From a virus, in the IMG/VR virus record IMGVR_UViG_3300025896_000024, positions 1-64,000 of that record: a stretch of DNA of 64,000 nt; one strand, given 5' to 3'. Numbering within the stretch: position 1 is the first letter of the stretch; the number at the start of each line of letters is the position of its first letter. Under the pieces are notes generated by a model, which saw nothing but the letters and a program-made list of their open reading frames with translations, ran no database searches and was not told the origin of the DNA. Shown piece after piece: positions 1-39,610 of the stretch. Position numbers and translations under genes: made by a program.

Positions 1-619
1 CCTCGGTCGTAATGAATTTTGACTCTGCCATTTTTGTTTCGTTTATATTTTCGATTGTTTGTTTTTCATTTGTATTATTTATCTCGTAAATAAATAGGTC
101 ATTTCCTTCATTAATAAATCCATAAGACTCATTAACTCTTTTTAATTCAGCATTCTCAAATCCAGGATCTGCCACTAAATCATAAGTAAATAATTGTTTG
201 ATTTTTACAGTTCCATTAGATTCAACTGCGCCTGCAGCTCTGCTTGAAATTTGTAAAGGAACTCCCGCATCAACTAAAGCCTTTGCTTGTCTTCCTGCAT
301 CCGTATCTAGTAATCGAATACGTCCTTTAACTTGTTTAGTATCTTTATCATAAGTAAGTTCTTCAATGATATGCGAAACATTTTTAAGCGAAACATCAAA
401 GTTACTTGGGTGGTCTAATTCACCTAATAATTTTGAAGATTTAATTTTTGCCTGTAGAGCTTCAATCTGTGGAAGATACTCATCTTCTGTATAAATTCGG
501 TTATTACGATTTTTCTTATCGATTTCTCCAAAGATACCTTCTAGAACATAGGTCCCACCATCTTGTTTAAACTCTAACTCCGTAGACGATCTTTCTAGGA
601 TCAGTAAGTTTTTAGTCAT
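1..619 (-). CDS. 21: Prohead core protease, T4 gp21-like (3' end cut off by the window)
   Basis: Serine protease of the herpesvirus-assemblin/T4 gp21 type that matures the prohead by cutting scaffold, capsid and internal proteins. I translated it directly from the ATG whose complement lies at 617-619; no stop is reached before base 1, so the C-terminus is missing. Seen: an N-terminal beta domain with LEGIFGEIDKKNRNNRIY, then LLGELDHP (candidate catalytic His) followed by LKNVSHII, and later LQISSRAAG (candidate catalytic Ser). These match the family's spaced GExxHP and S-S-R-A blocks. It follows the portal and a gp67-like gene in transcription order, the same 20-67-68-21 order as T4. An ATATATAAT box lies just upstream, near 645. 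Its substrates may include the polyproteins at 24-33 kb. Confidence 0.88.
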   Translation of the reverse strand, partial: MTKNLLILERSSTELEFKQDGGTYVLEGIFGEIDKKNRNNRIYTEDEYLPQIEALQAKIKSSKLLGELDHPSNFDVSLKNVSHIIEELTYDKDTKQVKGRIRLLDTDAGRQAKALVDAGVPLQISSRAAGAVESNGTVKIKQLFTYDLVADPGFENAELKRVNESYGFINEGNDLFIYEINNTNEKQTIENINETKMAESKFITTE

Positions 620-2653: not shown

Positions 2654-2675
2654 TATATTATAATATTAATTTTAG

Positions 2676-4124: not shown

Positions 4125-4148
4125 TTTTAATTTGTTTAATTGTTAGAA

Positions 4149-4177
4149 ATTATATAAGAAATGAACGGTTTGTTTCA
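4149..4177 (-). promoter_or_regulatory. Promoter, TGAAAC-17-TATAAT class, upstream of gp55
   Basis: Read on the minus strand, TGAAAC (complement at 4172-4177) is followed by exactly 17 bp and then TATAAT (complement at 4149-4154), about 25 bp before the gp55 start. The same two boxes at the same spacing recur at six other starts in the window. Confidence 0.72.
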
Positions 4178-4205
4178 TTATTAATACAGGATAGACATAG
4201 GGCAT

Positions 4206-4235
4206 AAAAAAAGGGACGCAATGCGACCCTTTTTA
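4206..4235 (-). terminator. Rho-independent terminator after the 253-residue gene
   Basis: On the minus strand AAAAAGGGtCGC, a short ATT loop and GCGtCCC are followed by a run of seven T. The hairpin has one internal T/T mismatch and lies 19 bp after the stop at 4254, before the gp55 promoter. Flanking A and T runs could let it act in both directions. Confidence 0.8.
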
Positions 4236-4253
4236 ATTTAATTTGGTAAAATA

Positions 4254-5015
4254 TTATGCATTTAAATCTGCAATTTTAGATTCCCATTCTTTGATTTCAG
4301 TATTAATTAAACCTTCAGCTTCTTTGATTATCTCGTCGTTTCTGTCTGATTCAGATAATAAACCCTTTTGGTCTTTTAAGAAAGCAATCATTGATTCATA
4401 CGTTTCAATTTTTTCTTGTTTTTCAGCGATACCGGCTTCTTCTCCTTCTAATAAAGATTTTAAGAAAGAGTGTGCAGATTCTCCAGTTTCATTAGTTACA
4501 TATTCTAATGCTTCATTAGCGTTTGCAACTTTAAAGAATTTAGAAATTCTTGTTTCATTGTTAAGACGTGCTACAAATATAGATTCTTCGATTTTGAATA
4601 AATCTACATTGATATTATTTCCTTTGAATGATGCAGCAAAATCTAGATTTACAAAATTTTCAAGTAATGATGGAATAGATTCAAATAAATCAGCTTTTGC
4701 TTTTTCATTATATCTTACTAATCCTGATGCTAGAACATGATTTGAAAATGTGTTTCCTTCGATTAACATATTGTTATGTTGGAATCTACTTTCTGTTAAA
4801 TTGTAAATAAATTTACTTGGTCCATGGAACCATTTGATAGAATCATTAGAAAATTCAAAAGATTCAAATGCTTTAATAGCATTGATTAGTGTTGAGTTAG
4901 TTAAAACTTCAACTTCCTTAATTTCATTGTTATTCATTTCAAAGACTCTTCCATTTACATAAAATTGAAAAGACTCTTCTACTTTCGCGAATGGTGCAAG
5001 AATGTTAGTTGTCAT
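4254..5015 (-). CDS. Hypothetical protein with C-terminal coiled coil
   Basis: A 253-residue acidic protein that I do not recognise. The first ~175 residues look globular, with alternating hydrophobic beta and helical stretches; the last ~75 residues (from about GESAHSFLKSLLEGEE) are Glu/Lys-rich heptad-like helix, probably a coiled coil. It is a single-gene unit: an ATATATAAT box lies 25 bp upstream (near 5035-5045) and a clear terminator follows the stop. No TGAAAC -35 box is seen, unlike the regulatory-gene promoters, so it may be expressed late. A structural or assembly role is possible but not shown. Confidence 0.7.
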   Translation of the reverse strand: MTTNILAPFAKVEESFQFYVNGRVFEMNNNEIKEVEVLTNSTLINAIKAFESFEFSNDSIKWFHGPSKFIYNLTESRFQHNNMLIEGNTFSNHVLASGLVRYNEKAKADLFESIPSLLENFVNLDFAASFKGNNINVDLFKIEESIFVARLNNETRISKFFKVANANEALEYVTNETGESAHSFLKSLLEGEEAGIAEKQEKIETYESMIAFLKDQKGLLSESDRNDEIIKEAEGLINTEIKEWESKIADLNA

Positions 5016-12253: not shown

Positions 12254-13450
12254 TTAAAATAATGATGTTGAATAAATTAAATTTCTATTTAGTGAATGTA
12301 ATCCAACTGCCACTAATACCCTATTTAATGGATCGATTACACTTTTTTCAAATTGTAGTTCATAATCGATAGGAGGTGCTATTTCGTATGGATGAGCTCC
12401 TGGTTGATATGCAAATATTTCACATGTTGTATGTTTACAATGATATAATTTTAGCTTCTCTCCATTACCAATCATCTTGTACTTGTTCTTGTATTTTGGA
12501 TTAGTATTCATTAAGAAGTTATAAAATCCTGCTGCCTTGACATTAGGAGGACACTTAAGACCATACTGAAATTCTATAGTATCATCTACGATATACTTTT
12601 CAATATTATTAGTTCTCTTATTAAAACAGATTTCATCTACACTCGCCAATTGAAACTCCTTCTTACATTGTTTTAAATAATCAACAAGTCTTTTTAATAA
12701 AGATGCTGTTGGTTTTTCTGATAGGATTAATTTAAGAGCTTCTGTCAAGTGTTTACGCGCAATCGCAGGAGTAGAACTTTGAATTGTATCATATCCAATT
12801 GTTTTAATCTTTTTAAGGGATGGATATCTTTCATCGATTCCTATTTTATCTTCCCATGCAATATTCTGTAAATATTTTTTCTTTGCTAACCAAATTCCGG
12901 AGTATGCAATTGTTTCTAGTTCAAACATAAGGAAGTTTTCCGTATTGGTTGCTTCCGCATATTTGTCCATACATTTGAAAATATAATCTTTAAGTCTAAA
13001 GTTGTATATTTTCATAATAAAATCGTCAATGGTTAACTTATCACCTAACCATTCGATAGATTCATACATTTCTTCAAACTGGACATAACACGAATCCGTA
13101 TCGATGTATACTACAGAAGGCCTTACTAATTTATTTTTTATGGTAATATTAAAGTGTGCATGCACTGCTTTATCCTTTGGCCAGAATTCTTGGAAATACT
13201 TATTAAGAATCTTTTCAGAATATAGAATCGCAGATTGTCCCTGTAGGGTAATTGATTCTGCGATGTCTATATTAAAAAAGTGAAACCATTTATTACCGAA
13301 TGCGCCATAGATTGAGTTAAGCATTACCTTAACAGCCTGTTCATACGCGGTATATTTGGCAGACAATGTTGAATAATGCTCTACCAGAATTTTAATATCT
13401 TCCTGTGTCAGATCGCTCTCTGGCTTTAGTATTAATTCATCTATTGTCAT
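12254..13450 (-). CDS. 43B: DNA polymerase gp43, C-terminal piece (palm motif B/C, thumb)
   Basis: Second half of a split family-B polymerase. The 398 residues begin just upstream of motif B, KVMLNSIYGAFGN (residues 41-53). Motif C is YIDTDS (115-120), followed by thumb-domain blocks AYSGIWLAKKKYLQN and KTIGYDTIQSSTPAIARKHL, as in T4 gp43. Exonuclease motifs and motif A are absent and lie in gp43A (17046-18443), so the break falls in the fingers. Together the pieces make 863 residues against 898 in T4. The protein ends in STSLF, a possible clamp-binding tail. It directly follows the clamp gene (3 bp), which would favour assembly with gp45. Confidence 0.94.
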   Translation of the reverse strand: MTIDELILKPESDLTQEDIKILVEHYSTLSAKYTAYEQAVKVMLNSIYGAFGNKWFHFFNIDIAESITLQGQSAILYSEKILNKYFQEFWPKDKAVHAHFNITIKNKLVRPSVVYIDTDSCYVQFEEMYESIEWLGDKLTIDDFIMKIYNFRLKDYIFKCMDKYAEATNTENFLMFELETIAYSGIWLAKKKYLQNIAWEDKIGIDERYPSLKKIKTIGYDTIQSSTPAIARKHLTEALKLILSEKPTASLLKRLVDYLKQCKKEFQLASVDEICFNKRTNNIEKYIVDDTIEFQYGLKCPPNVKAAGFYNFLMNTNPKYKNKYKMIGNGEKLKLYHCKHTTCEIFAYQPGAHPYEIAPPIDYELQFEKSVIDPLNRVLVAVGLHSLNRNLIYSTSLF

Positions 13451-17045: not shown

Positions 17046-18443
17046 TTATTTTAGCATTTTTTTATATTGATCTGCTTTAGTATAATACTCATATGAAGTT
17101 TTTTTATAATCCTTACGCTGTTGGTAAAGATCGCTAAGAATTTTTCTAAGAATAGAATCTTCATTATTATATACAACTCCATTATCGCATACAATTATAT
17201 CTTTATCCTTTCTTCTTTCTGCTATTTCACCTTTACTTATTTTTTCAATATATGCGTCTGGTGAAATATTAAATTGACGCATAATTGAAGGGTATAGGGA
17301 AGCAAAATCGAATGCACTTACACCTTCATAGAATCCAAGTATTGGTTCTTTTACAAATGCACCTGCATATTGTCCATCTTTATTAGAATCTTTCTTTTCC
17401 TCACTACCAATTCTCATTCCTTGCTCTGCAAGTTTTCTAGCCATAATAGCTTCAGTAACTGCCACTGGAGAACTTGCCTTATAAAGTGGCATGTTTGTAA
17501 TGTTTGCAAGAGTTAAAAGTACCTCCATCGATTTTAGTTTCTGGTCAATATAATAAACCAATACTGAATCGACTACGTTGTAATAAATATACTTTGTAAA
17601 ATTATCTCTATAAAGATCTTGTAAAGATCCTGTAAATTTAATCTTGTTAACTTTTAAAACTTGGCTTGAAACATAATCAAGTGAATTGGATTCTTTTACC
17701 TTTACACTTCTATCATACTTATCATATAATTGCATGTAATCTAAGATTCCGATATGGAGAGGTCTACTGTCTGATTTATCAACCTCTTTGGTCATGCTGA
17801 CATCTGCAATATCAATTTGTAATCTTTTACATCGATTTACAATATACTGCCAGTCATAGTTAATAAAGTTCCATCCTGTCATCATTGGGAATTTAGGCAA
17901 GAACTTCATCAAAAACGTATAAACCATATCATATTCAGATTTGAATTTATAGTACTTAAATTCCCAATCTTGATCAAAGTCTTTGAAATATTCATTGGTA
18001 TCATCTTGTATTTTTTTAATACTTTCTGAATCCATATCTTCAAGACCTAATACAATTGCTTTACGTTCTGGTGTAATAATTGAAAAGGAAAGAATTCTAC
18101 TTTTAGCTTCTTCTGCCTTAGGAAATCCATCAATGATTTCAGTTTCGATATCGACAAAATAAGTCTTTGGCATATTATATGCGGTCAATTCTGCTTTATC
18201 TTTTTCAGAAAGAGAATCTAAAAAATAAAGGATTGAAAACTTATTAAACTGCCTACCATATCCTAATTTAACTTTGCGACCATCCCAATTAGTATATTGT
18301 GTACTTGCTGCTCTATCTTTATCATCGCATACATACCAGTTTTGGAATTTATCTACAGGATATTGTTTAAATGCTACTTCACCTTTGTCATTATAATAGG
18401 ATATGATAATATCCTTTTCTCTTTGCTCGATATCTAATATCAT
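17046..18443 (-). CDS. 43A: DNA polymerase gp43, N-terminal piece (exonuclease and palm motif A)
   Basis: First half of the split family-B polymerase, 465 residues. Seen: Exo I TYFVDIETEI, Exo II GWNFINYDWQYIVNRC, Exo III-like NVVDSVLVYYID, and palm motif A SAFDFASLYPSI near residue 380. It ends after the start of the fingers helix (LYQQRKDYKK ... QYKKMLK), exactly where the C-terminal piece takes up. The stop is a clean gene end, and nrdB, nrdA and gp45 separate the halves by about 3.6 kb. The two proteins presumably reassociate. The gene overlaps the dUTPase stop by one base. Confidence 0.94.
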   Translation of the reverse strand: MILDIEQREKDIIISYYNDKGEVAFKQYPVDKFQNWYVCDDKDRAASTQYTNWDGRKVKLGYGRQFNKFSILYFLDSLSEKDKAELTAYNMPKTYFVDIETEIIDGFPKAEEAKSRILSFSIITPERKAIVLGLEDMDSESIKKIQDDTNEYFKDFDQDWEFKYYKFKSEYDMVYTFLMKFLPKFPMMTGWNFINYDWQYIVNRCKRLQIDIADVSMTKEVDKSDSRPLHIGILDYMQLYDKYDRSVKVKESNSLDYVSSQVLKVNKIKFTGSLQDLYRDNFTKYIYYNVVDSVLVYYIDQKLKSMEVLLTLANITNMPLYKASSPVAVTEAIMARKLAEQGMRIGSEEKKDSNKDGQYAGAFVKEPILGFYEGVSAFDFASLYPSIMRQFNISPDAYIEKISKGEIAERRKDKDIIVCDNGVVYNNEDSILRKILSDLYQQRKDYKKTSYEYYTKADQYKKMLK

Positions 18444-22575: not shown

Positions 22576-23241
22576 TTAATATTCAAATGGAGGAGTTTCA
22601 TAATCTGCGCGTTTAACCGCATGCCATATCCTTCCTACTCTGAAATACCAAAAAGTATTTCCTTCTATAATGTAATGTTGTCCTTTAACAGAAACACTTT
22701 TATATCCATTTCTTGTGAAGTTCTTAGTAACAGGAACTCCATCTTCCCATGTTTTATCAGTTGATTGCGCTTTAAAACTTCTACCGTCAAACGATGCTAA
22801 ATAAATATCTGCCTGCTTTCCTGCTTCCTTTTCATCATTTGCGAATTGTTCTAATCCTAAAGGTAAATTAAGAGCACTTTCATTCATTTCATTAAGAAAT
22901 TGTTCGAATGTTTTTAACATAGCTTCTCTTTTCTTTTTATTTTTCTTATATTCCTCTTCTGCATCGCCAGCTCCTGATAAAATATCCCCGGAACCTGTTT
23001 GGGTTGCTGTCGGTAATAAGGTTGCTCCCATTCCACCAATACTTGATGGTAAAGCATTTTCATCTGCCCTCTGTGGTAATCCTTTATGTTTTGTACTTGC
23101 AAAATCCTTTAACTGCTGTAGTGTCATAGAATCAGCAAGATCTTTAACCTCTTGACTTGCGTCCTTGGGATCCATTTCTCCTTTTTTAAGAGAGTAGGCC
23201 ATACCCATTAATTGTTGCTGTGCTATACTTGTACTTGGCAT
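22576..23241 (-). CDS. DUF3008-like protein fused to an internal capsid-targeting-like segment
   Basis: A 221-residue protein. Residues 1-55 match the small phage family DUF3008: MPSTSIAQQQLMGMAYSLKK, then ADSMTLQQLKDFASTKHKGLP. A Gly/Ala-rich linker follows. At residue 108 a new leader-like segment begins, MLKTFEQFLNE, in the style of the capsid-targeting leaders at the N-termini of neighbouring proteins. The C-terminal ~90 residues form a small beta domain (SVKGQHYIIEGNTFWYFRVG). This looks like a fusion of two genes in which the second gene's leader became internal. It is the last gene of the internal-protein cluster and ends before a strong terminator. Confidence 0.72.
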   Translation of the reverse strand: MPSTSIAQQQLMGMAYSLKKGEMDPKDASQEVKDLADSMTLQQLKDFASTKHKGLPQRADENALPSSIGGMGATLLPTATQTGSGDILSGAGDAEEEYKKNKKKREAMLKTFEQFLNEMNESALNLPLGLEQFANDEKEAGKQADIYLASFDGRSFKAQSTDKTWEDGVPVTKNFTRNGYKSVSVKGQHYIIEGNTFWYFRVGRIWHAVKRADYETPPFEY

Positions 23242-23243
23242 GA

Positions 23244-23639
23244 TTATTGATTTTTAGGTGAATTTGCACTATTTGTTTTTAAAATACTTATTAAGTTTTT
23301 AACACCATTTTCTTGTTTATCCCATCCTGTTGCTTTATTAACTTCTTGCCCGAATCTTTTTCTATCTGGAGTATTTGGATTAGGTTTTTGCCATTTACCA
23401 GAAGACTGTACTCTAATCATGGAATTAGTCTGATTAGCAGGCCCTTCTGTCCAATATATCAATACTGCGTCGTCGAACGTTATTGAATCAAAATTTGAAG
23501 ATTTTGCGCTTGTTTCTTCGGTAATTTCGGCCCATGGACATTTTTTAGCAACAGTGTCTATTACATATTTTCTAAATTGTTCTGAATTTAAATTTAATGC
23601 TTCATTTACGAATTCCTCGTATAGTTTAATGTGTTTCAT
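23244..23639 (-). CDS. Putative internal head protein with capsid-targeting-like leader
   Basis: A 131-residue protein of unknown function. It begins MKHIKLYEEFVNEALNLN. The VNE/A at residues 11-14 fits the T4 prohead protease rule (I/L/V)-x-E before A/G, so the first 13 residues may be removed in the prohead, as in T4 IPIII (MKTYQEFIAE/A). The remainder is a small mixed alpha/beta domain with an aromatic core (AVLIYWTEGP) and a basic C-terminus. It lies between two other leader-bearing genes, 2 bp before the DUF3008-like fusion. An internal, DNA-ejected protein is inference from the leader and context. Confidence 0.7.
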   Translation of the reverse strand: MKHIKLYEEFVNEALNLNSEQFRKYVIDTVAKKCPWAEITEETSAKSSNFDSITFDDAVLIYWTEGPANQTNSMIRVQSSGKWQKPNPNTPDRKRFGQEVNKATGWDKQENGVKNLISILKTNSANSPKNQ

Positions 23640-23653
23640 ATATTATTTTAAAT

Positions 23654-24205
23654 TTATTTTATGTCTATTGTTAAGAATAAAGATCCTCTAATTTCAACAT
23701 TGTTATATCCCACTGAAGCATCAAAACTTCCTAGTATTTCAGTATCTGTGCTTGAAACCAACGCAGTATTTGTCATTCCTCCAAGTTTCCTAGAAAATTT
23801 GTTAGCATCAATATCATCCGCAAACCCAATATTAATTACAAAATCTCCAGGAAATCTTGCCAATAATTCGCTTCTTTCAGGTCCATTTACTCCATTTACT
23901 TCATCTGCAATCCATTTATAATTACCTAAAGTAGATGTCACATATATCACTGCATCTTTATCTTTAATTTGTTTCATTACTTCAGTTTCGATGATTTTTG
24001 CACCTTCATTATTAGCCCATTTTAACCATACTGTATTCAAATCATCTAATGTTGATTTAACATTTCCATCATATTGAACACGTTCAACTTGTTTTTTAAA
24101 TGCAAATGCAACCTTTCCTGCTATTCCTTTAGCACCATACGATCCTGTTAATTGATACGCCTTTTCAGTTACTAAAAAATCTTCGTATAATTTAATATGT
24201 TTCAT
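23654..24205 (-). CDS. Putative internal head protein with capsid-targeting-like leader
   Basis: A 183-residue protein of unknown function. I chose the ATG at 24205 (MKHIKLYEDFLVTEKAYQL) rather than one 21 bp upstream, because the leader then aligns with MKHIKLYEEF in the neighbouring gene and the longer form would overlap the preceding ORF. The leader's VTE is followed by Lys, so cleavage there is less certain. The body looks like an alpha/beta domain: GIAGKVAFAFKKQVERVQYD, then IKDKDAVIYVTSTLGNYKWI, and later GDFVINIGFADDIDANKFSR. No family is recognised. Confidence 0.7.
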   Translation of the reverse strand: MKHIKLYEDFLVTEKAYQLTGSYGAKGIAGKVAFAFKKQVERVQYDGNVKSTLDDLNTVWLKWANNEGAKIIETEVMKQIKDKDAVIYVTSTLGNYKWIADEVNGVNGPERSELLARFPGDFVINIGFADDIDANKFSRKLGGMTNTALVSSTDTEILGSFDASVGYNNVEIRGSLFLTIDIK

Positions 24206-24219
24206 ATTCTTATTATTTA

Positions 24220-27168
24220 TTACCAAGCGTAGCTTAATGTATCTATTTTTTTAACATTATCTTGTATGTCTTTTGCATGATTTTTTAAACTACCCGCATA
24301 GTAATTTCCAGTATATCCTGCTGCTTTTTCTTTTTCATCGTTTGCAACATCTCCAACATATCTTGAGTATGTGTCTAAAATATTTCTCATTAAATTAGAT
24401 GCATCTGACATTTTAACTTCTTTTCCACGTGGATCTAATCCAATTAAAAGATCTCCATATTTTCCTTTTTCACCTTTAATGATTGCATCTTTAATTTGTA
24501 TAGAAAGAGTATCTATAGCTTTTGAAACTACGGAATCCATCGGCATTGAAGACGCTTTAGTTGCTAAAATATCATTATATCTTGCCTTGTTTTCTGCTTT
24601 AAAATCTTTATCATTCATAAATGCAACTGCACCTTTTCTTGCAGCAGTTCTTTCACTTCTTTGTGCTTCTGTAGAATATCTTGCTCTAAGAATATCTAAA
24701 TCTAAACAATATGCTCTGTCTGCTAAATCAGCCACTTGTTTCATACTTGAAATACCTGAACCATATTGATCGCTAGCACTTGATTTATCGATTCCTGCAG
24801 AATCATCTCTTTTTGTAGTCTTTAGTGTTTTTGATGATTTTGAAGAAAAGCTTCTTGTCCATTCAGTATTCATCCATTCATTACTACCATCGGTGATTGC
24901 TAATAAAGTATTTGCTGGAATTGTATGCGCATTATATGAATTTTTTCCAGCATATGGATTTTCTTTTTCATTTGTTGTAAAATACATATAAATTGCTTTG
25001 GATCTTTTTTCCTTTTTTGCAGTCTGAGGATCCATATCTAAAATATCAATATCTTGTATTTTATCTAATGCTAATTTAGACATGTTATAGAATGCTGCAG
25101 GAAGATCAGCTGGCATTTTATTTCCACCTGTTAAAATACTTGCAAGTTTTGTTGAAGCAAACGCTTCATTTAATGAATTATTAGATTCATTTAAAGAACT
25201 AACGAATTCACTAAATGATTCGTAAATAAATTTTGTTTTCATATTTGTGTTTATATTTTCTGATAAATCAACATGCCATCCGAATTCTACGTAATTAATA
25301 GCGTCCTCGGGAGTAACATCCCATTTTTTAGCAGCATCCAATACTATTTTTCTGGTTAATTTGGAATTTGGATATTTAGAAATAGCTTTATCAAAATTGC
25401 CAGGAACCCATATTTCTGGGTTATAACCTTTTGGAAATTCTTTAAACTCTGCTTCATTTACTGTAATACTTTTAAGAATCTTTTGTCCAACTTTAGATAA
25501 TGAAACTCCATCTTCTGAAATTGTAAAATATTGTGAATTGCTTTTAGTCCATCTTTTAGAATTGTTTGAAAGACCTGCAACAAAATTTTCAAATGCTTCT
25601 TTGGTAATTTTACCATTTTTAATAAATTCTAATACTTTGTTTCTAACGTTAGCATTTTTACCAACAGTAGATGCTGGATGATTTTCAGTATATTGTCTTT
25701 TAAGTATAATTTTTTTACCCTCAATTATTGATGATTCCATTAAATCTTCTAATTCTAAGTCATAATCTGCTAGAACTTTATTTAATTCGCCTAATGGTAC
25801 TTTGTCTCCATACTCGATGGATAGATCTTGAATTGCTGATTTTGCGTCAATTACTGAATCTCCTGCTATATTAGCTATTTTAACTATTTCCTTTGTATTA
25901 TAGAATTTTTTAGATTCGATAACAATAGATTCGGCAACGTTGGTTTCCCAATAATTTTTAAGTTCATTAAAATCAGATTTACCCATATTAGAAATCATGT
26001 ATTCTTCAATGTCGTTATCATAATCTTCAGCTTCATCTCTGTATCCACCTGGAGTATCAATATAATCTTTACCCATTATTCTTTTAATTCTATTCTCTGG
26101 CATACCATCGATTTCTTCTAAGAAATCTTCAAATTCTTTGGTACTTTTAAACTTTTCGGCTTCATTAATTACAGATTCATCAATTCCTAAATCTTTTTTA
26201 GCAGCCTTAATGGCTGTATTATAATAAAGTTCAGTACCTTGATCTGACGTAGAGTTTAAAACTTTAGTAAGTTCTTTGATATTATCCTTTCCGTCAAAAT
26301 TAAATTTTGAAAGAGCATAAGGATTTATACGGAAAAAACCTGCAAGTCTAGATATTGCTTCTGATTTTACTGTTTCAGCTTCATTAATTACTGATTCATT
26401 TGCGAATTTTTTCATATTCTTAATAATAGTATCTACTGAATCGTTTTTCCTGCCATATACTGGATTATTTCTTAAAGCCATATTCATAACATTTCCATTT
26501 TGAAAAATATTGTATGAACCTCCATCAAATTCCAATCCATCAACATCTAAGTCAAATGAATCTTCTTCTAATGTTCTTTTATTTACAGTAACTTTAGAAC
26601 CATCTGCCTTTGACATTGCATCAGCAAATTTTTGAGCTATAACCATAGTTTCTTCTTTTGAAAGTCCTGCTGGTTTTGCATGAGGATTAGCCTCACTAAC
26701 TAATGATTCTCCTAAATAATCTTTAATTTGTTCTTCAGCATATTCTTGAGCTTCCTTTTCTGTATCAAAGAAATCTGGCGTTCCAACAACTCCACTAAGT
26801 TCTCCTATTCCATTTACTGAATATCCTTTAGGGGCTTCGAAATAAGTTAAATATGTTAGACCTTTATATTTCTTAATAGATTTACGACTAGCTTCATTGA
26901 TTTCAGATTCTTTAATTGCTAATTGTAAATCTTTGTCTTTTCCTGCAACAGCAGAATCTAACTCTTTTATTAAGTCATTTTTCTGTGAGGTTAATCCTTT
27001 TAATTCTGCAAGAATATTTGCCTTTTCATCTCCTTCTGCTGCAGAATATTCCTTTGCCATTACTGACATTTTGTTTACAACGTCTGTGAATTCAGTTTGA
27101 ATTTTGTTAATAGATCTCTCATTTAACACGTTATTAATTTCATTTAGATATTTATCAAATGTGCTCAT
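24220..27168 (-). CDS. Putative internal-head polyprotein with eight prohead-protease-like sites
   Basis: A 982-residue ORF that looks like a string of small proteins. Sites fitting (I/L/V)-x-E before A/G/S fall after residues 92, 159, 263, 336, 418, 483, 572 and 668, most of them within a recurring ES-x-x-NEA linker (SEINEA, SVINEA twice, SIVIES, SSIIEG, SITVNEA, NSLNEA). Cutting there gives eight segments of about 65-105 residues plus a 314-residue C-terminal domain. An internal leader MKTKFIYESFSEFVSSLNE starts at residue 643, just before the last site, as if a once separate gene had been fused. The ORF itself starts with MSTFDKYLNE. None of the segments is a family I know. Processing by the gp21-like protease is inference. 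Confidence 0.75.
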   Translation of the reverse strand: MSTFDKYLNEINNVLNERSINKIQTEFTDVVNKMSVMAKEYSAAEGDEKANILAELKGLTSQKNDLIKELDSAVAGKDKDLQLAIKESEINEASRKSIKKYKGLTYLTYFEAPKGYSVNGIGELSGVVGTPDFFDTEKEAQEYAEEQIKDYLGESLVSEANPHAKPAGLSKEETMVIAQKFADAMSKADGSKVTVNKRTLEEDSFDLDVDGLEFDGGSYNIFQNGNVMNMALRNNPVYGRKNDSVDTIIKNMKKFANESVINEAETVKSEAISRLAGFFRINPYALSKFNFDGKDNIKELTKVLNSTSDQGTELYYNTAIKAAKKDLGIDESVINEAEKFKSTKEFEDFLEEIDGMPENRIKRIMGKDYIDTPGGYRDEAEDYDNDIEEYMISNMGKSDFNELKNYWETNVAESIVIESKKFYNTKEIVKIANIAGDSVIDAKSAIQDLSIEYGDKVPLGELNKVLADYDLELEDLMESSIIEGKKIILKRQYTENHPASTVGKNANVRNKVLEFIKNGKITKEAFENFVAGLSNNSKRWTKSNSQYFTISEDGVSLSKVGQKILKSITVNEAEFKEFPKGYNPEIWVPGNFDKAISKYPNSKLTRKIVLDAAKKWDVTPEDAINYVEFGWHVDLSENINTNMKTKFIYESFSEFVSSLNESNNSLNEAFASTKLASILTGGNKMPADLPAAFYNMSKLALDKIQDIDILDMDPQTAKKEKRSKAIYMYFTTNEKENPYAGKNSYNAHTIPANTLLAITDGSNEWMNTEWTRSFSSKSSKTLKTTKRDDSAGIDKSSASDQYGSGISSMKQVADLADRAYCLDLDILRARYSTEAQRSERTAARKGAVAFMNDKDFKAENKARYNDILATKASSMPMDSVVSKAIDTLSIQIKDAIIKGEKGKYGDLLIGLDPRGKEVKMSDASNLMRNILDTYSRYVGDVANDEKEKAAGYTGNYYAGSLKNHAKDIQDNVKKIDTLSYAW

Positions 27169-27184
27169 TTGTTTTAATTTTATT

Positions 27185-29080
27185 TTATAAGATTATATAT
27201 TTAGATTTATTTATGAATTGTTCAAACGTCATAATTTCTTCTGAATTTTCAATATTCTCCTGAACAACTCCGACCGCATCTTCTAATTTTGACTTTAATT
27301 CTTTATACATTCCATGGATAGCCTTAGGCGTCATTGATTGGAAATCTTTTTCATTTCCATCTAACATTGCATTTCTAACCTTAGTTGCTGAGATATTATC
27401 GTCAGTTCTTGGAATTTCAAATAATCCAAAATCTGCTCTTGCATTTAACTGGTCTCTATATGAATCATTATTAACCATATAACCATATCCTTTCATTCTA
27501 TCACTTCCTGTTCCCCATAATACTGGTTCGTATTTTGGTCTCATTTCATTATATAATGTATCAATTGCAGCGTTTGGAACAACATATATTTCCTTTAAGA
27601 AAGGATATTGTTTTTTAACCTGGTTGAACATATCAACCTGTGTTTTTTCATCGTATGGTTTACTAAACTCCTCGCCTTTTTTAACCTTAGATTTAACTAA
27701 AAATACAACTACTGGAAATCCATTTTCCTTATTCATTATTTCTAATACCTTTGCATGTCCTAGCGTAAATGGTTGAAATCTTCCAACAAACATGTTTACA
27801 GGTTGTTTACCTTGTTCCATGTGTTTTACAGTAAGAGCTTCATTTAAATTTACTGAAGATTTAATCTTATTATGTAACATAAAATTGGTATAATCATAAA
27901 TTGCGTTTTCATCTGTATTTTCTACAAATATCTTTTCGTTGATAGCATCTATGATTTCATTCATTCTTGACATTGTGTCCTTGTCAATTAGGTCTGATTC
28001 TTTAGTTCTTTTCTTTCTAAAAGAACTTAAAATCATTTTAAATAATTCGGCAAGTACTTCATTATTTACAAATTTTAATGTTTTTTCGTTTTTAATATAT
28101 TTAGTATTTAATCTAAATGATTGTGCTTCTGAAAATTCAGCACTTTCAAAATTAACACCAATATATTTTGAAGAATTTTTATCAATATATCCATTAAACA
28201 AGACAGACATCAATTCCAAATATCTATAGTCTGCATGTTCATCTTCTAAATTAATATCTTTTAAATCTTGTTGTACTATATACTCTAAGAAATCTGTTAC
28301 TGCAATTTGGTAAGTGTGACTAGAAGCTCTTAAATCTCTTTTATCAGCAGATGCTCTTAAAAAATCTTCAAGTTTAAATGACTTCATTGTTTTTCCTTCT
28401 ATGAAGTTTATAACTAATCCATCGATCTCACTTTCAAGATCTGGATTTAATGAAGTTGAATAGATATTAGGATTAAACATCTTAAATATCTTCGAAGTAA
28501 AACTTGTTTTGTCTTCAGTTTCTATTGCATAATCAAATGAATCTGAATATTCTCTATCGCTCATTGCTAACAAATCTAAGAGTTCCTCTCTTTGTTGTTG
28601 AGAAAGGTACGCATCAAAAATAACATTTGGTGATTGTACATCAAGTAATTTTGCCCATTTATTTAAGATTAATGGATCATTAATAGTTTTTCTAACCTTT
28701 CCTCCATCACTTAATTGTTGTATATGTGTAAGAATTAAGCTATTTGTAGGAGTTGTGGCATAATCTATATTAGAAGCTTTAGTTTCTGGTAAATATTCAA
28801 ATCCAAATTTCCAATCTAGTGGAAATTGAGATTTTACATCGCTCGGTAAACTTTGTAAATGATTAATTGCCATTTCATATAATGATATAACAGTCCTATC
28901 GACAAAATTTAATTTATCTGATGTTGAAGATTTATAAAACTCAAATCCATCTGTATTTCTTTTAAAAAGAAAAGATGGTGCTGCAATCTTTTCAGTCACT
29001 AACACTCTACCCTTTAACATTTCAATAAAATTTTCTCTATTGGTTTCGTTAAAATACTCTCTTAATTTTTGTAATGCCAT
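27185..29080 (-). CDS. Ligase-like nucleotidyltransferase fused to an HxGH-type nucleotidylyltransferase
   Basis: A 631-residue two-domain protein. Residues ~25-240 show the covalent nucleotidyltransferase pattern of RNA/DNA ligases: VTEKIAAPSF with K31 as candidate motif I lysine, WKFGFEYL (90-97) as motif III, EIDGLVINF (218-226) as motif IV and KSFK (233-236) as motif V. Residues ~428-570 are an NMNAT/cytidylyltransferase-like domain: GRFQPFTLGH (434-443; the first His of HxGH is Thr, as in some family members) and ISATKVR (563-569). A site NLNE/A (412-415), fitting the prohead-protease rule, sits exactly between them. The C-terminus carries a stray leader-like MTFEQFINK. RNA repair or NAD-related chemistry delivered with the virion is possible but unproven. 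Confidence 0.7.
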   Translation of the reverse strand: MALQKLREYFNETNRENFIEMLKGRVLVTEKIAAPSFLFKRNTDGFEFYKSSTSDKLNFVDRTVISLYEMAINHLQSLPSDVKSQFPLDWKFGFEYLPETKASNIDYATTPTNSLILTHIQQLSDGGKVRKTINDPLILNKWAKLLDVQSPNVIFDAYLSQQQREELLDLLAMSDREYSDSFDYAIETEDKTSFTSKIFKMFNPNIYSTSLNPDLESEIDGLVINFIEGKTMKSFKLEDFLRASADKRDLRASSHTYQIAVTDFLEYIVQQDLKDINLEDEHADYRYLELMSVLFNGYIDKNSSKYIGVNFESAEFSEAQSFRLNTKYIKNEKTLKFVNNEVLAELFKMILSSFRKKRTKESDLIDKDTMSRMNEIIDAINEKIFVENTDENAIYDYTNFMLHNKIKSSVNLNEALTVKHMEQGKQPVNMFVGRFQPFTLGHAKVLEIMNKENGFPVVVFLVKSKVKKGEEFSKPYDEKTQVDMFNQVKKQYPFLKEIYVVPNAAIDTLYNEMRPKYEPVLWGTGSDRMKGYGYMVNNDSYRDQLNARADFGLFEIPRTDDNISATKVRNAMLDGNEKDFQSMTPKAIHGMYKELKSKLEDAVGVVQENIENSEEIMTFEQFINKSKYIIL

Positions 29081-29094
29081 TTTATTAAATTATA

Positions 29095-29412
29095 TTAATT
29101 GAAATCTGATCTAGATGCAACACTATTTTTGTTCTTATTATAAAAAGAACCTAATATTCCAATTTGCGCAACACTAAAGGTGTGTTCTCCTCCATTTACT
29201 TTATCCTTAATAAAAATCATTGGTTGAATTTCAAACTGCGAATTTGGTGTGAATTTTGCATTTAATATAGCTTTGCTTGAAGATAATATTTCTTCAATAT
29301 CTTCTACTGTAAATGGAATATCGAAATAATATATAAGTCCAGTGGATGTGTCAAATGATGGCGAATCTTTTGCCTCATTAATAAATGATTCGAATGCTTG
29401 TGTATATTTCAT
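29095..29412 (-). CDS. Small internal head protein candidate with capsid-targeting-like leader
   Basis: A 105-residue protein whose first residues, MKYTQAFESFINEAKDS, form a leader with a good prohead-protease site INE/A (11-14). The body (about 90 residues) is a small beta-rich domain with FDIPFTVEDIEEILSSSKAI then FEIQPMIFIKDKVNGGEHTF. The family is unknown. It lies 15 bp before the ligase fusion and 20 bp after the DUF6267-like gene, in the middle of the internal-protein cluster. Confidence 0.68.
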   Translation of the reverse strand: MKYTQAFESFINEAKDSPSFDTSTGLIYYFDIPFTVEDIEEILSSSKAILNAKFTPNSQFEIQPMIFIKDKVNGGEHTFSVAQIGILGSFYNKNKNSVASRSDFN

Positions 29413-29432: not shown

Positions 29433-30719
29433 TTATCTACCATATTTTATAATACCCATTAACTGATTAATGGCAGCAAATGTTCCTGTAAGTTTCATTG
29501 TTTTTCCTTTATATACAAATACAATACCTTCTGTTGGAATAATTGAATCGATTCCTCCGATTCTATCAAGCCTTTCAAGTTCTGACATTACTTTATCAAT
29601 TTGTGCAATATCTCCACCTACTTTAATTTTATCTGCTTCTGTTCTAATCTGCGTATGTAATCTTTGCATTTCTGCTGCCGGATTTGCAGCAACAAAGTTA
29701 CTTGCATTCTTCAAGATAATACTACCTAATTCCAAGAATAAATCTTCAAATGGTCTAATATTTTCTTTATATTTCTTTTTAACATCTTCTTTATCAAATT
29801 TCTTAATAAGTTCGGCTTGATCTTTTCCAAGTTCTTTATCTAAACTTCTTAGATTAAGAGTTTTCTTATCATCATACGCCCATCTTAATAATAAACCTTC
29901 TTTATGGTCTTGTGGTAAATTTGGGAAATTTTTGTCAATTAATTCTCTCCACCACATTTCATGATATCTAGAAACCTCATCGGCATCTGTTAATTTATAA
30001 CGATTCTTTAGGTCTTCTACCTTTTTAATAAATTTTGATTTATTTGTATCAAAATCAACGTCTTTACCGATCTTAATAATCTGTGGAGGAATAATAGTAA
30101 ATACCTTTCCTATGTGTGCCTTGACATCTTCTAAGGCCTTTGCAATAGATCTAGCATATTTATTATCATCTCCGATAATATTACCATCACCGTCAGTTAT
30201 TTTAATCCCATGGAACTGTATAATGTCTCTGTCATAGTAAATAACATTTGGATTCTTAGAATAAATAAGCTCCATATTCATGAAGTTCTTGCCATTATTA
30301 AATGCCTCTAAATCTTTAGTTGATAATTTAATAAGTGCATTTGCTAAATCTTCTGCTGCATATTGAAAGGTCTCTTCGACCATTTTACTTGGATGTCCAG
30401 CAAATTTTTGTTTAAACGTATTAAGATCCATTGGATTCTTAAGTTCAGTTTTATTTCTGGCAAATTTAACCTGTCCATCTTGTACTGTTGCAAATACATT
30501 TTGTCCATCTGTTTTTTCAGTAGGATCTTCCTCAAATGTTAAATTACCTGAAAGTCCCGCTTCAATTATTTTCTTAAAATCCCCGAATGTAAGATCTCTC
30601 TCGTCAAATGGATGGGACATATGTCCAGCTGCTCCACCTTCAAGTAAAAGTTGTTCATTTAATTTTACTTCATATTTTTCAGTTATAAACTGATTGAAAT
30701 TAAGGATTTTTGTTTTCAT
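29433..30719 (-). CDS. Ligase-like nucleotidyltransferase, DUF6267-like
   Basis: A 428-residue protein. After a leader (MKTKILNFNQFITEK ... QLLLE/GG, a plausible protease site after residue 27) comes GGAAGHMSHPFDERDLTFGD, a block I recall from the phage family DUF6267. Covalent nucleotidyltransferase motifs follow: TEKTDGQN with K69 (motif I KxDG), KFARNK (Ia), FMNMELIY (III), EGIVFVYKGK (IV) and MKLTG (V). These would allow nucleotide-linked lysine chemistry as in RNA or DNA ligases. The substrate is unknown. The leader suggests it is packaged in the head and enters the cell with DNA, for instance for early RNA or DNA repair, but this is inference. Confidence 0.75.
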   Translation of the reverse strand: MKTKILNFNQFITEKYEVKLNEQLLLEGGAAGHMSHPFDERDLTFGDFKKIIEAGLSGNLTFEEDPTEKTDGQNVFATVQDGQVKFARNKTELKNPMDLNTFKQKFAGHPSKMVEETFQYAAEDLANALIKLSTKDLEAFNNGKNFMNMELIYSKNPNVIYYDRDIIQFHGIKITDGDGNIIGDDNKYARSIAKALEDVKAHIGKVFTIIPPQIIKIGKDVDFDTNKSKFIKKVEDLKNRYKLTDADEVSRYHEMWWRELIDKNFPNLPQDHKEGLLLRWAYDDKKTLNLRSLDKELGKDQAELIKKFDKEDVKKKYKENIRPFEDLFLELGSIILKNASNFVAANPAAEMQRLHTQIRTEADKIKVGGDIAQIDKVMSELERLDRIGGIDSIIPTEGIVFVYKGKTMKLTGTFAAINQLMGIIKYGR

Positions 30720-30794: not shown

Positions 30795-32726
30795 TTAAGA
30801 TTCTTGTGCGATCATTGCCTGGATAACATCTGATGATATCCATCCAGTTGCTTTAAAAAAATCATGAGCTAAGTTCATTACTTTCTTTTCTCCAGCATTA
30901 GTAACTTCATTGTCTTCACCATCTTCATTGTTATCGTTCCACTCTTCAACTTCGTCTTCTACTGCTCTTGCAACTTTAGATGCTGAAGTTATTTTTGTAG
31001 ATTTTTCATGGTAATCTTCCCAATATTTTGCGTTAAACGCTTCGTTAGTGGCAGATTCTCCTAGAGAACTAGTTAACATTCCAACTGCAGCACCATAGTC
31101 ACCATCACATTTTTTAAGGATTCCATCAATTGTATCTCCAGCCTTTGCTTCTTCAAAGTCAGATCCAAATGCTTTTTTCAAAACGGTCATTGCATATTCT
31201 TTAAATTCATCATCAGATTTAATTTCAGCTTCAGTAACAATAGCTTCTTCAATATATTCTGCAAGATCCGCATCATCCCATCCATATTCATCATCCGCTA
31301 AAACAGCTTTAAGACTTTTAACATCTCCTGTTAATTTAACTTCAGGATATCCTGATGGCCCATTTTTATTAATTACTTCTAGCGAAACTTTATACTTCTT
31401 TAATAATTTTGCAAGATTTTTATCTTTAGGATCTACTGCATCTACTTCTACAGTTGCTTCATTTGTTGCAGATTCTTCAGAATTTGCCTCAAATACTAAT
31501 GTAACATCTTTAACATTAAGAGTTTTAACTAAATCTCCTAATTTATCATATAAATCATTCAATTCATCTTCAGTATGGTGTTTATATCCTTTCTTTAGGT
31601 TTATAGTTGCGCTACCGAATTTAGCCATATAATCATCTTTTCCTTCAGTAATTACAGATTCTTTAATTCCTAATTCTTGTAATTTTCTAACAGGTACACC
31701 TTTCTTTTCTTCATCATCTGGATTAGGATATGCTAATAAATTAGCAGCGATTAATCTTTTATAGATTTCTCCTTTAACTAATTCAAAATCAATAGAGTCG
31801 CTTGAATTTTCCCAAGTATCTGATACGAATTCTGGATCAATCCAACCATAACCTGATTTAATATCTTTAATTAAAGTCTGCATGTCTTTGTCAAATTGCT
31901 TTGCAACCGCTTCATTAATTATAGATTCTTTAATACTACCCTTTAATGTATCTAATTCTGTCTTTAATTTAGGATCTAATTGTCGTTCAATTCCCCAATT
32001 AAATGATGCCTTAACTAACATGTTTAATGGTAGGGTTGCATTTCTTTTTCCATATGGAGAAGTTCTAATCCAATCAATATAATGTTGTGCTAATTCTTTT
32101 GAAATTTTTAAACCTTCGGCTGCAGATGTATTACCATCAACAATTTCTTGTAAAGCTTTAGTTGCATTAATCCTAGCCTCATTAACAGATTCATACATTC
32201 CTGCTAATTTGCTCTTCTTAATTTTCATAACAATGAAATCGCAAATTTCATCAAATTCAAACATTTCTTCAGATAAATCATCAAAGATTGTTTTTGCAGA
32301 ATCAATTAAAGATTTCATAGCTTTCATATTATGAAGTCCATCCATTCTATCATATTCACTTCTACTAATTGCTTCATCAATAATCTCATTATCTTCTTTG
32401 ATGCCAGTATCTTTAATAGTTACTTTATAAGTTTTACCATTAAATTCAAATTCCTTTTTTCCATCTGCTTTAGCTTTACCTGCAGCGTACACAAATGCAT
32501 TACCCTCATTTGTTTCTTTACCTAACAATTTAGATATGAAAGCTGACTGGGAATCTTCATCGATTTCAGATAGATTTGTTAATCCCATCTCATCTAAAAT
32601 TTCTTCAATTTTAGATAGTGTCTCTTGTTTCTTTAGACTGTTTTCTTCTCTCAATTTCATTTCATTTTCTTGAGATTTAATCTCTGAAAAACTTTTAAAT
32701 GATGAGATTCTATTAACTTCTGCCAT
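30795..32726 (-). CDS. Putative internal-head polyprotein with repeated prohead-protease-like sites
   Basis: A 643-residue acidic ORF built like the 982-residue one. Cleavage-like motifs follow residues 118 (IIDE/A), 183 (SVNE/A), 272 (SIINE/A), 361 (SVITE/G) and 499 (IVTE/A); two ES-ATNE/A copies after 423 and 562 and a weaker TNE/G after 74 have Thr at the third position. Resulting segments are about 60-120 residues. Some look like independent small folds, for example DEFKEYAMTVLKKAFG ending before GESATNEA. The N-terminus MAEVNRISSFKSFSEI is a diverged leader. A late-type TATAAATA box lies 29 bp upstream and a terminator follows, so it is its own unit. Function of the products is unknown. 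Confidence 0.75.
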   Translation of the reverse strand: MAEVNRISSFKSFSEIKSQENEMKLREENSLKKQETLSKIEEILDEMGLTNLSEIDEDSQSAFISKLLGKETNEGNAFVYAAGKAKADGKKEFEFNGKTYKVTIKDTGIKEDNEIIDEAISRSEYDRMDGLHNMKAMKSLIDSAKTIFDDLSEEMFEFDEICDFIVMKIKKSKLAGMYESVNEARINATKALQEIVDGNTSAAEGLKISKELAQHYIDWIRTSPYGKRNATLPLNMLVKASFNWGIERQLDPKLKTELDTLKGSIKESIINEAVAKQFDKDMQTLIKDIKSGYGWIDPEFVSDTWENSSDSIDFELVKGEIYKRLIAANLLAYPNPDDEEKKGVPVRKLQELGIKESVITEGKDDYMAKFGSATINLKKGYKHHTEDELNDLYDKLGDLVKTLNVKDVTLVFEANSEESATNEATVEVDAVDPKDKNLAKLLKKYKVSLEVINKNGPSGYPEVKLTGDVKSLKAVLADDEYGWDDADLAEYIEEAIVTEAEIKSDDEFKEYAMTVLKKAFGSDFEEAKAGDTIDGILKKCDGDYGAAVGMLTSSLGESATNEAFNAKYWEDYHEKSTKITSASKVARAVEDEVEEWNDNNEDGEDNEVTNAGEKKVMNLAHDFFKATGWISSDVIQAMIAQES

Positions 32727-38936: not shown

Positions 38937-39305
38937 TTATACTTTACTACCAAGTGAAGAACCTAAAGCGGCTCCTACTAATCTTGAAGTTAACATATCA
39001 TACATAATTCCGGAGGTAATTCCAAGAATATTTGCTATAGTTTTACCAATAGTTTTACCAAGTGCAAAACCTGCCAATCCACCAAATATACTTCCTAATA
39101 CTCCTTCATTTGTAAGTTCTTCATTAAATGCATGGATATTATAAGTACCATCTGTATTCTTATATGTTGATGCGAACTCTTCAATTGCAGCATCTACTTT
39201 AGCTTCCAATTCTTCAGTCCACTCAGTTTGCAAGGATTCAGTTAATATCGCTAATTCCTTATCTGATATATTTTCCTCTTTAATATAATCTAAAAATGTT
39301 TTCAT
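38937..39305 (-). CDS. Leader-bearing protein with glycine-zipper membrane segments
   Basis: A 122-residue protein in two parts. It begins MKTFLDYIKE, in the style of T4 capsid-targeting leaders, followed by an acidic helical region to about residue 60. After ELTNE/G (67/68), which fits the ATNE/A-type sites in the polyproteins, comes a Gly/Ala-rich hydrophobic stretch with GSIFGGLAGFALGKTIGKTI and VGAALGSSLGSKV, the pattern of glycine-zipper or channel-forming peptides. Processing would free a ~55-residue membrane-active peptide. A role in crossing the inner membrane during DNA ejection, or in lysis, is conceivable. It overlaps the next gene by one base. Confidence 0.65.
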   Translation of the reverse strand: MKTFLDYIKEENISDKELAILTESLQTEWTEELEAKVDAAIEEFASTYKNTDGTYNIHAFNEELTNEGVLGSIFGGLAGFALGKTIGKTIANILGITSGIMYDMLTSRLVGAALGSSLGSKV

Positions 39306-39610
39306 TATTTAAATGCTTTAGTTAATTCGTCAGTTAATTCAGTAGGATCAATTCTAAATGTAAATCCTGCAGCGTCATGTCCAGCTTCAAACCACATACA
39401 TGTTGATATTAGTGGAGAACTTTTAGCCATTTTCTTTTCAATAATATCTACAATAGTGTTTTTACCATTAACATGAATCGTATCTAATGTTTTTGAATCG
39501 GGTATAAATGTTATAGCTAATCCCTTTCTATCTACAATAGTTTGTAATGTAAATGTTAGGTTATCTATATTAACCTTTCCTTCGTTTATATAATCATCAA
39601 ATGTTTTCAT
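39305..39610 (-). CDS. Small internal head protein candidate with the best capsid-targeting-like leader
   Basis: A 101-residue protein starting MKTFDDYINE/GK. This is almost superposable on the T4 IPIII leader MKTYQEFIAE/A: same length (10), same MKT start, aromatic at 4 and 7, Ile at 8, Glu at 10. Cleavage would release a ~91-residue domain with VDRKGLAITFIPDSKTLDTI and STCMWFEAGHDAAGFTFRID. The family is unknown. It is coupled to the glycine-zipper gene, and the two form a second, smaller set of internal-protein candidates away from the 22-33 kb cluster. Confidence 0.68.
   Translation of the reverse strand: MKTFDDYINEGKVNIDNLTFTLQTIVDRKGLAITFIPDSKTLDTIHVNGKNTIVDIIEKKMAKSSPLISTCMWFEAGHDAAGFTFRIDPTELTDELTKAFK

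What the first reader, a model, noticed from the sequence alone, without database searches (positions are those of the whole stretch)
24220..27168. A 982-residue ORF that reads as an internal-head polyprotein with eight protease sites
Seen: the motif ES-x-x-NEA and variants recur eight times at intervals of about 65-105 residues (cuts after 92, 159, 263, 336, 418, 483, 572, 668). Each fits the known T4 gp21 rule (I/L/V)-x-E before A/G/S. T4 internal proteins (IPI-III) are separate genes cut once; I know of no T4-like example with many small proteins strung together. A gp21-like protease is encoded in the same window (1-619). Inference: cleavage releases eight small proteins and a 314-residue domain inside the capsid, which would enter the host with the DNA.
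Basis: partly seen in the sequence, partly recalled or inferred. Interest (0 to 1): 0.9.

Follow-up and report, generated by a model that had tools for sequence, protein, structure and literature searches.

The report
Phage-head polyprotein of swappable protease-cut modules
Uncultured T4-like phages appear to string many small proteins into one chain that the phage's own head protease should cut apart inside the capsid, so that one packaging tag could load a changing set of proteins that may be injected into the host; this rests on sequence comparison and still needs a virion experiment.

Summary
The ORF (minus strand, 27168-24220, 982 aa) carries 15 [ILV]xE[AGS] sites against 3.4 expected (0 of 5000 shuffles). 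All eight proposed cuts are legal, and five have a second site exactly five residues upstream.

It is not isolated. A second polyprotein lies at 30795-32726, and loci from uncultured phages give 56 distinct ORFs of the first type and 40 of the second. Homology breakpoints fall at the sites far more often than chance. Whole modules are gained, lost, duplicated, or shared between the two polyproteins; some are stand-alone genes starting with a T4-like capsid-targeting peptide (MKHIKLFEQFVNEA; T4 IPII/IPIII MKTYQEFIAEA). All 56 junctions before the C-terminal domain keep [ILVM]xE|[AGS]. Capsid proteins of relatives start with the same motif, and one module sits inside a protease-scaffold ORF.

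Best reading: a prohead-targeted polyprotein cut in trans by the gp21-type protease, releasing small internal head proteins. Cleavage, virion location and injection are inferred. Module functions are unknown; fold and family searches gave no significant match for the window ORF. No precedent was found in the held literature. I file it as a new variant of T4 internal-protein packaging.

The parts
24220..27168 (-). Polyprotein A, 982 aa: N-terminal targeting-like peptide, modules, 314-aa C-terminal domain
   Evidence: 15 gp21-type sites, 0 of 5000 shuffles; relatives; breakpoints at sites
26893..27168 (-). Module 1 (residues 1-92), starts MSTFDKYLNE
   Evidence: Residues 17-92 related to segments of 13 type-B polyproteins and 5 other type-A ones
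26692..26892 (-). Module 2 (residues 93-159), absent from L003, L007 and L010
   Evidence: No relative found in the loci held
26380..26691 (-). Module 3 (residues 160-263), compact predicted fold
   Evidence: pLDDT mostly 78-93; directly follows the N-terminal targeting peptide in L004 and L005
26161..26379 (-). Module 4 (residues 264-336)
   Evidence: Found elsewhere only in L068, 85% identical, next to module 5 in the same order
25915..26160 (-). Module 5 (residues 337-418)
   Evidence: Also in 9 type-B polyproteins, up to 88% identical
25720..25914 (-). Module 6 (residues 419-483)
   Evidence: Also in L003 and L010, and at the N-terminus after the targeting peptide in L017
25453..25719 (-). 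Module 7 (residues 484-572)
   Evidence: 47 type-A matches; N-terminal after the targeting peptide in L018, L040, L045
25165..25452 (-). Module 8 (residues 573-668), ending in an internal targeting-like peptide (about 643-668, MKTKFIYESFSEFVSSLNESNNSLNE)
   Evidence: Resembles the N-termini of single genes L027_15257 and L027_16282
24223..25164 (-). C-terminal domain (residues 669-982)
   Evidence: 56 distinct relatives, all preceded by [ILVM]xE|[AGS]; AlphaFold pLDDT 84.5, no known fold match
30795..32726 (-). Polyprotein B, 643 aa, with the same kind of sites
   Evidence: 10 gp21-type sites; 40 related type-B ORFs
23244..23639 (-). Single-tag protein, starts MKHIKLYEEFVNEA
   Evidence: Sequence; same start as T4 IPs in layout
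23654..24226 (-). Single-tag protein; likely start MKHIKLYEDFLVTE a few codons inside the TTG ORF
   Evidence: Sequence; relatives start MKHIKLYEEFLTEK and similar
29095..29412 (-). Single-tag protein, starts MKYTQAFESFINEA
   Evidence: Sequence
29433..30719 (-). Single-tag 428-aa protein of unknown function, starts MKTKILNFNQFITE
   Evidence: 20-member family of single-tag proteins in the loci; relatives in LR756500 and phage Mel-JY01
27185..29080 (-). 631-aa protein with a C-terminal NMN-adenylyltransferase-like domain after a site VNLNE|A at residue 414
   Evidence: Pfam CTP_transf_like E 4e-6; phrog_3041 E 1e-17; PDB 2qjo E 2e-4
22576..23241 (-). DUF3008 protein fused to module c22 through an internal targeting-like peptide (MLKTFEQFLNE)
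   Evidence: Pfam E 4e-10; module c22 at residues 127-193
1..619 (-). gp21-type prohead protease, truncated by the record end; fused to a scaffold-like part in relatives
   Evidence: Pfam E 4e-13, PHROG E 4e-45; GELDHP and ISSRAAG align with T4 H85 and S140; fusion in L123-L131
679..1029 (-). Protein in the gp67 slot, starts MKIIKTFEEF
   Evidence: Position between portal and protease as in T4

Best explanation
The ORF encodes an internal-head polyprotein. A targeting peptide at the N-terminus (and a second inside, about 643-668) recruits the chain into the prohead core. The phage's gp21-type protease cuts after [I/L/V]-x-E, in five of eight places twice so that a five-residue linker is clipped out. 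This frees about eight small modules and a 314-residue domain inside the capsid. By analogy with T4 IPI-III and Alt, some products probably stay with the DNA and enter the host. Shown by sequence: the sites and their conservation, module borders at sites, sharing of modules with a second polyprotein and with stand-alone targeted genes, the same motif on capsid and protease-scaffold proteins of relatives. Inferred: targeting, cleavage, virion location, injection and function.
For: Sites far above chance. Tandem sites exactly 5 residues apart: 47 in type A and 77 in type B against at most 2 in shuffles. Homology breakpoints within 8 residues of a site: A against B 412 of 673, 148.5 expected, maximum 192. 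All 56 junctions before the C-terminal domain obey the rule although the upstream module often differs. Modules shared between polyproteins and as single targeted genes. Single genes and the gp67-slot protein start like T4 IPII/IPIII. Capsid proteins of relatives start with the same motif. Module c15 lies inside the protease-scaffold ORF of L123. Protease with conserved H85/S140 positions. Per-module purifying selection. All eight cuts lie in low-confidence stretches of the model. T4 targeting-sequence biology from PMC9026906.
Against: No protein data: nobody has seen cleavage or the products in virions. Segments 264-336, 337-418 and 419-483 are not confidently folded in the model. P3 is often V here, whereas the T4 rule is L/I-x-E. 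Core proteins are also multiply cut in T4 and their pieces mostly leave the head (PMC9026906). The 314-residue domain is larger than T4 IPs. Breakpoint counts come from related ORFs and are not independent. The protease of this phage is incomplete in the record.
Confidence: 0.78

Rival explanations
1. A core or scaffold-type protein: it enters the prohead and is chopped by the protease, but the pieces are waste or filler, as for T4 gp22, gp67 and gp68, and have no function after cleavage.
For: T4 gp22, gp67 and gp68 are cut into many fragments that mostly leave the head (PMC9026906); module c15 occurs in the protease-scaffold ORF of L123; T4 gp22 has many legal sites.
Against: The scaffold is already present as a separate ORF fused to the protease. 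Sites sit at module borders rather than throughout; modules occur as single targeted genes; individual modules are conserved; module content varies greatly between relatives, unlike an essential scaffold.
Confidence: 0.12
2. A multidomain protein that stays uncut; the motif is a flexible linker sequence that promotes module exchange but is not a protease site.
For: No direct cleavage data; a conserved linker would also give breakpoints at the motif.
Against: The linker matches a known protease rule at P3, P1 and P1'; the same motif follows the targeting-like peptide of the single proteins and starts the capsid protein; the protease is encoded nearby.
Confidence: 0.08
3. Internal translation starts (for instance Met 643) make the C-terminal domain a separate product, and the upstream part is a decaying fusion.
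For: The peptide at about 643-668 keeps a Met and looks like a former N-terminus.
Against: Upstream modules have dN/dS of about 0.07-0.28; the frame is open in 30 type-A polyproteins; several relatives have no such Met or peptide before the domain, e.g. L053, L054, L011.
Confidence: 0.02

Closest known systems
T4 internal head proteins IPI, IPII, IPIII (and Alt) with a capsid-targeting sequence
   Same: N-terminal targeting peptide of the MKxxxxF/Y-x-x-F-I-x-E layout, a gp21-type site, small payload, T4-like phage
   Different: T4 proteins are separate genes cut at the termini; here many modules are strung in one chain with a site at each border, often doubled
T4 core proteins gp22, gp67, gp68
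   Same: Cut at many places by gp21 inside the prohead
   Different: Their fragments mostly leave the head; here modules are exchangeable units that also exist as single targeted genes, and the scaffold is a separate ORF
Giant phage SPN3US / phiKZ head proteins with long propeptides
   Same: Several prohead-protease cuts in one precursor (PMC5694885, PMC10052503)
   Different: There the cuts remove N-terminal propeptides from one mature protein; protease motif A-x-E; no module series described
Polyvalent proteins of phages and conjugative elements
   Same: Several payload domains on one chain, predicted to be delivered with DNA and processed (PMC5512222)
   Different: Those mostly carry their own peptidase domain and known enzymatic domains; here cutting would be in trans by the prohead protease and the modules match no Pfam family
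RNA-virus polyproteins
   Same: One chain cut by a virus protease into separate proteins (analogy only)
   Different: No homology; here cutting would take place inside the capsid of a DNA phage

Membership tests
T4-type internal head proteins (CTS proteins) | N-terminal capsid-targeting peptide | tested here: met
   MSTFDKYLNE in the window ORF and MNFNQFLNEA in relatives, against MKTYQEFIAEA of T4 IPII/IPIII; likeness of layout only, targeting itself not tested
T4-type internal head proteins (CTS proteins) | gp21-type cleavage site | tested here: met
   15 sites; the site at the N-terminal peptide itself (KYLNE|I) lacks a small P1' residue in the window copy
T4-type internal head proteins (CTS proteins) | One protein per gene, cut at the termini only | tested here: not met
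   Eight module borders with sites inside one ORF
T4-type internal head proteins (CTS proteins) | Present in the virion and ejected into the host | not testable with these tools
   Needs virion proteomics and an injection assay
T4 gp22-type scaffold | Gene between protease and capsid genes, or fused to the protease | tested here: not met
   That slot holds the protease-scaffold ORF in nine relatives; the window ORF lies about 24 kb away
T4 gp22-type scaffold | Many gp21 sites | tested here: met
Polyvalent proteins | Known effector or enzyme domains, often with a peptidase domain in the same chain | tested here: not met
   No Pfam family in the ORF; Pfam scan of 55 C-terminal domains gave only scattered weak hits
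Peptidase S77 (gp21) for window 1-619 | Profile match and conserved His and Ser positions | tested here: met
   Pfam E 4e-13; T4 H85 and S140 positions conserved; that these are catalytic is from my own knowledge

The most novel reading that the evidence does not exclude
A clade of large T4-like phages uses protease-cut modular polyproteins as exchangeable cassettes for loading a changing mixture of small host-takeover or counter-defence proteins into the head with one targeting tag. Modules move between two polyproteins, the protease-scaffold ORF and stand-alone genes by recombination at the protease linkers, and packaged enzymes such as an NMN adenylyltransferase are delivered alongside.
Probability: 0.5. 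Interest if true: 0.9.

Novelty: new variant of a known kind. Interest (0 to 1): 0.82.

Why it matters
If true, a DNA phage uses polyprotein processing, best known from RNA viruses and retroviruses, to load many proteins into its capsid with one tag. The cut sites act as module borders, so payload can be found by reading the borders: 37 sequence clusters of modules and single-tag proteins with four or more members are a ready list of candidate internal proteins. T4 IPI is an injected inhibitor of a restriction enzyme (PMC9026906), so counter-defence roles are a reasonable guess. The reading predicts exact N-termini that mass spectrometry can check, and suggests how several foreign proteins might be packaged from one gene.

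Tried and rejected
Isolate phages (INPHARED, tblastn): no match for either window polyprotein or for a diverged type-A relative. A type-B relative (L011) gave one weak module match (26-30%) to Streptococcus and Synechococcus phage proteins (phrog_1987). Genome contigs: no relative of the C-terminal domain, so no host from there. PDB by sequence and Foldseek against PDB and BFVD, with the full model and the better C-terminal model: nothing significant. Pfam on 55 C-terminal domains: scattered weak hits only. A Bacteroidetes promoter motif TAnnTTTG is not enriched (117 against 106 expected), so a Bacteroidetes host is only suggested by portal relatives (Lak, PAU, Tenacibaculum PTm1). In 45 kb of LR756500, a 462-kb uncultured phage with conserved gene order here, the type-B slot holds a 287-aa ORF with a weak match to the type-B N-terminal module, and no type-A polyprotein was seen, so the expansion looks clade-specific. 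The idea that the ORF is the scaffold was rejected because the scaffold is elsewhere. No paper in the held library describes such a polyprotein; most subscription journals and preprints are not held.

Full report
CHECK OF THE OBSERVATION. The 982-residue ORF exists, on the minus strand (27168 to 24220). The gp21 rule [ILV]xE|[AGS] is met 15 times; shuffles of the same composition give 3.4 on average and none of 5000 reached 15. Strict ES..NEA occurs three times; the others are variants. Five of the eight cuts have a second legal site exactly five residues upstream (87/92, 154/159, 331/336, 413/418, 478/483). Over the type-A relatives there are 47 such pairs and over the type-B relatives 77, where shuffles give at most 2. 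The prohead protease at 1-619 is confirmed (Pfam Peptidase_S77 E 4e-13; PHROG E 4e-45), with the T4 H85 and S140 positions conserved, but it is truncated: the window is the first 64 kb of a 93,904-base IMG/VR record.

A SECOND POLYPROTEIN AND A SET OF SINGLE-TAG PROTEINS. ORF 30795-32726 (643 aa) has the same build (ESIINEA, ESVITEG, EAIVTEA, ESATNEA). Between and around the two lie proteins with one such site or peptide near the N-terminus: MKHIKLYEEFVNEA (23244-23639), MKHIKLYEDFLVTE (23654-24226), MKYTQAFESFINEA (29095-29412), MKTKILNFNQFITE (29433-30719), MKTFLDYIKEE (38937-39305), MKTFDDYINEG (39305-39610). T4 IPII and IPIII begin MKTYQEFIAEA, read here from the T4 record. In T4 this ten-residue peptide suffices to send proteins into the head and is removed by gp21, whose motif is L/I-x-E (PMC9026906).

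RELATIVES. Scans of IMG/VR gave 11, 23 and 80 loci; the last found 181 stretches encoding the C-terminal domain and kept the best 80. After removing near-duplicates there are 89 ORFs with at least two ES..NEA-type sites and 62 with at least three, up to 12. They fall mainly into type A (56 ORFs carry the C-terminal domain, 30 of which met the polyprotein cut-off) and type B (40 ORFs related to 30795-32726). No match was found in isolate phages for the window polyproteins or, for the C-terminal domain, in bacterial genome contigs.

MODULES END AT THE SITES. L003 and L010 lack residues 93-159, L010 also lacks 264-336, and L008 lacks about 266-429, at or near sites. Over all relatives, homology breakpoints fall within eight residues of a site far more often than when the sites are circularly shifted: A against B 412 of 673 (148.5 expected, maximum 192 in 300 shifts); A against A 472 of 1052 (185, maximum 239); B against B 548 of 1110 (263, maximum 304); polyproteins against short single proteins 112 of 229 (47, maximum 66) (an earlier set gave 359 of 634 against 130). 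These counts are not independent, because the ORFs are related. A check that does not depend on the motif used to pick polyproteins: the residues just before the C-terminal domain read [ILVM]xE[AGS] in 56 of 56 distinct sequences, although the module before it often differs.

MODULES MOVE. Module 337-418 occurs in nine type-B polyproteins, at up to 88% identity, and in four type-A ones including the window; module 264-336 was found elsewhere only in a type-B-like fragment (L068, 85% identity), next to the following module in the same order. Module 1-92 matches 5 other type-A and 13 type-B ORFs; the window's type-B module 424-499 matches 11 type-A ORFs. Some modules are single genes in other phages: the C-terminal domain (L027_16282, L027_15257, L076_3858, L009_11376), c27 (L054_10973, MKHIKLFEQFIGEAVNPAAYVKAGKLGYND), c13 (L032_9944), c22 and c35. 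L055 has c27 twice in a row. Inside the window ORF, the peptide MKTKFIYESFSEFVSSLNESNNSLNEA (about 643-669) looks like the N-terminus of such a single gene, which points to origin by fusion (inference).

LINK TO THE PROHEAD. In nine relatives the capsid gene was found by profile and the head region read. The capsid proteins start with ..NLINEAEI..TWAPII..ATGI or close variants, i.e. with sites of the same kind. The protease ORF continues into a scaffold-like part (604-771 aa in all nine). The protein in the gp67 slot starts with the same targeting-like peptide (for example MRYVKLFEQFIKEE in L130). In L123, module c15 (window type-B residues 424-499) lies inside the protease-scaffold ORF (residues 393-462, iE 2.6e-29). 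In L124 a single-tag protein (MQYVKLFEQFINEA) lies between the protease-scaffold and capsid genes.

STRUCTURE AND SELECTION. AlphaFold on 17 aligned sequences gave mean pLDDT 60; residues about 20-70, 160-256, 510-565, 590-630 and the C-terminal domain are modelled with moderate to good confidence, and all eight cuts lie in stretches below 50. Such stretches make up 40% of the chain, and segments 264-336, 337-418 and 419-483 are not resolved, so this supports but does not prove separate folds. The C-terminal domain alone, on 55 sequences, reached pLDDT 84.5 but has no significant match in the structure libraries at hand. dN/dS per module is about 0.07 to 0.28 against L003, L006 and L010; module 264-336 against its single relative gives 0.40.

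MECHANISM. Most likely the chain enters the prohead core through its N-terminal and internal targeting peptides, is cut by the protease during head maturation, and leaves small proteins with the DNA. T4 internal proteins give the precedent for ejection into the host, and T4 IPI for counter-restriction and for a small fold able to pass the portal (PMC9026906). Targeting, cleavage, virion presence and injection are inferred here. The main rival is that the pieces are discarded core fragments as for T4 gp22; module sharing with single targeted genes and module-level conservation argue against it without excluding it.

NOVELTY. Repeated cutting by a prohead protease is known for scaffolds and long propeptides (PMC5694885, PMC10052503), and multidomain delivered proteins are known as polyvalent proteins (PMC5512222). 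A chain of many exchangeable small modules cut by the prohead protease was not found in the held literature. It works like T4 internal proteins but fails their one-protein-per-gene feature, so I file it as a new variant of a known kind.

Noticed in passing
window 1-619; L123-L131: The gp21-type protease is fused to a scaffold-like part in one ORF of 604-771 aa in nine relatives, unlike T4 where genes 21 and 22 are separate. The window copy is truncated by the record end.
   Followed up: partly
window 27185-29080; L034 8957-9550: NMN-adenylyltransferase-like domains with targeting-like peptides: in the window after a site VNLNE|A, in L034 directly after MKHVKLFEQFINEA. A head-packaged NAD-making enzyme might counter NAD-depleting defence; untested.
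   Followed up: partly
window 29433-30719: 428-aa single-tag protein with an EKTDGQN stretch that resembles a ligase or nucleotidyltransferase motif by eye; no Pfam or PDB support. In phage Mel-JY01 its relative is fused to a cytidylyltransferase-like protein.
   Followed up: partly
window 4254-5015: 253-aa ORF upstream of the portal with eight gp21-type sites but no ES..NEA pattern; the relatives L123-L131 have a similar ORF there. Possibly another core protein.
   Followed up: no
window 12254-13450 and 17046-18443: A family-B-like DNA polymerase appears split into two ORFs (ASLYPSI in one, YIDTDS in the other, by eye) with ribonucleotide-reductase-like and other genes between them.
   Followed up: no
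L011 residues 386-517 of ORF 1970-4645: Module c7 matches phrog_1987 and small hypothetical proteins of Streptococcus prophages, so some modules have distant stand-alone relatives in other phages.
   Followed up: partly
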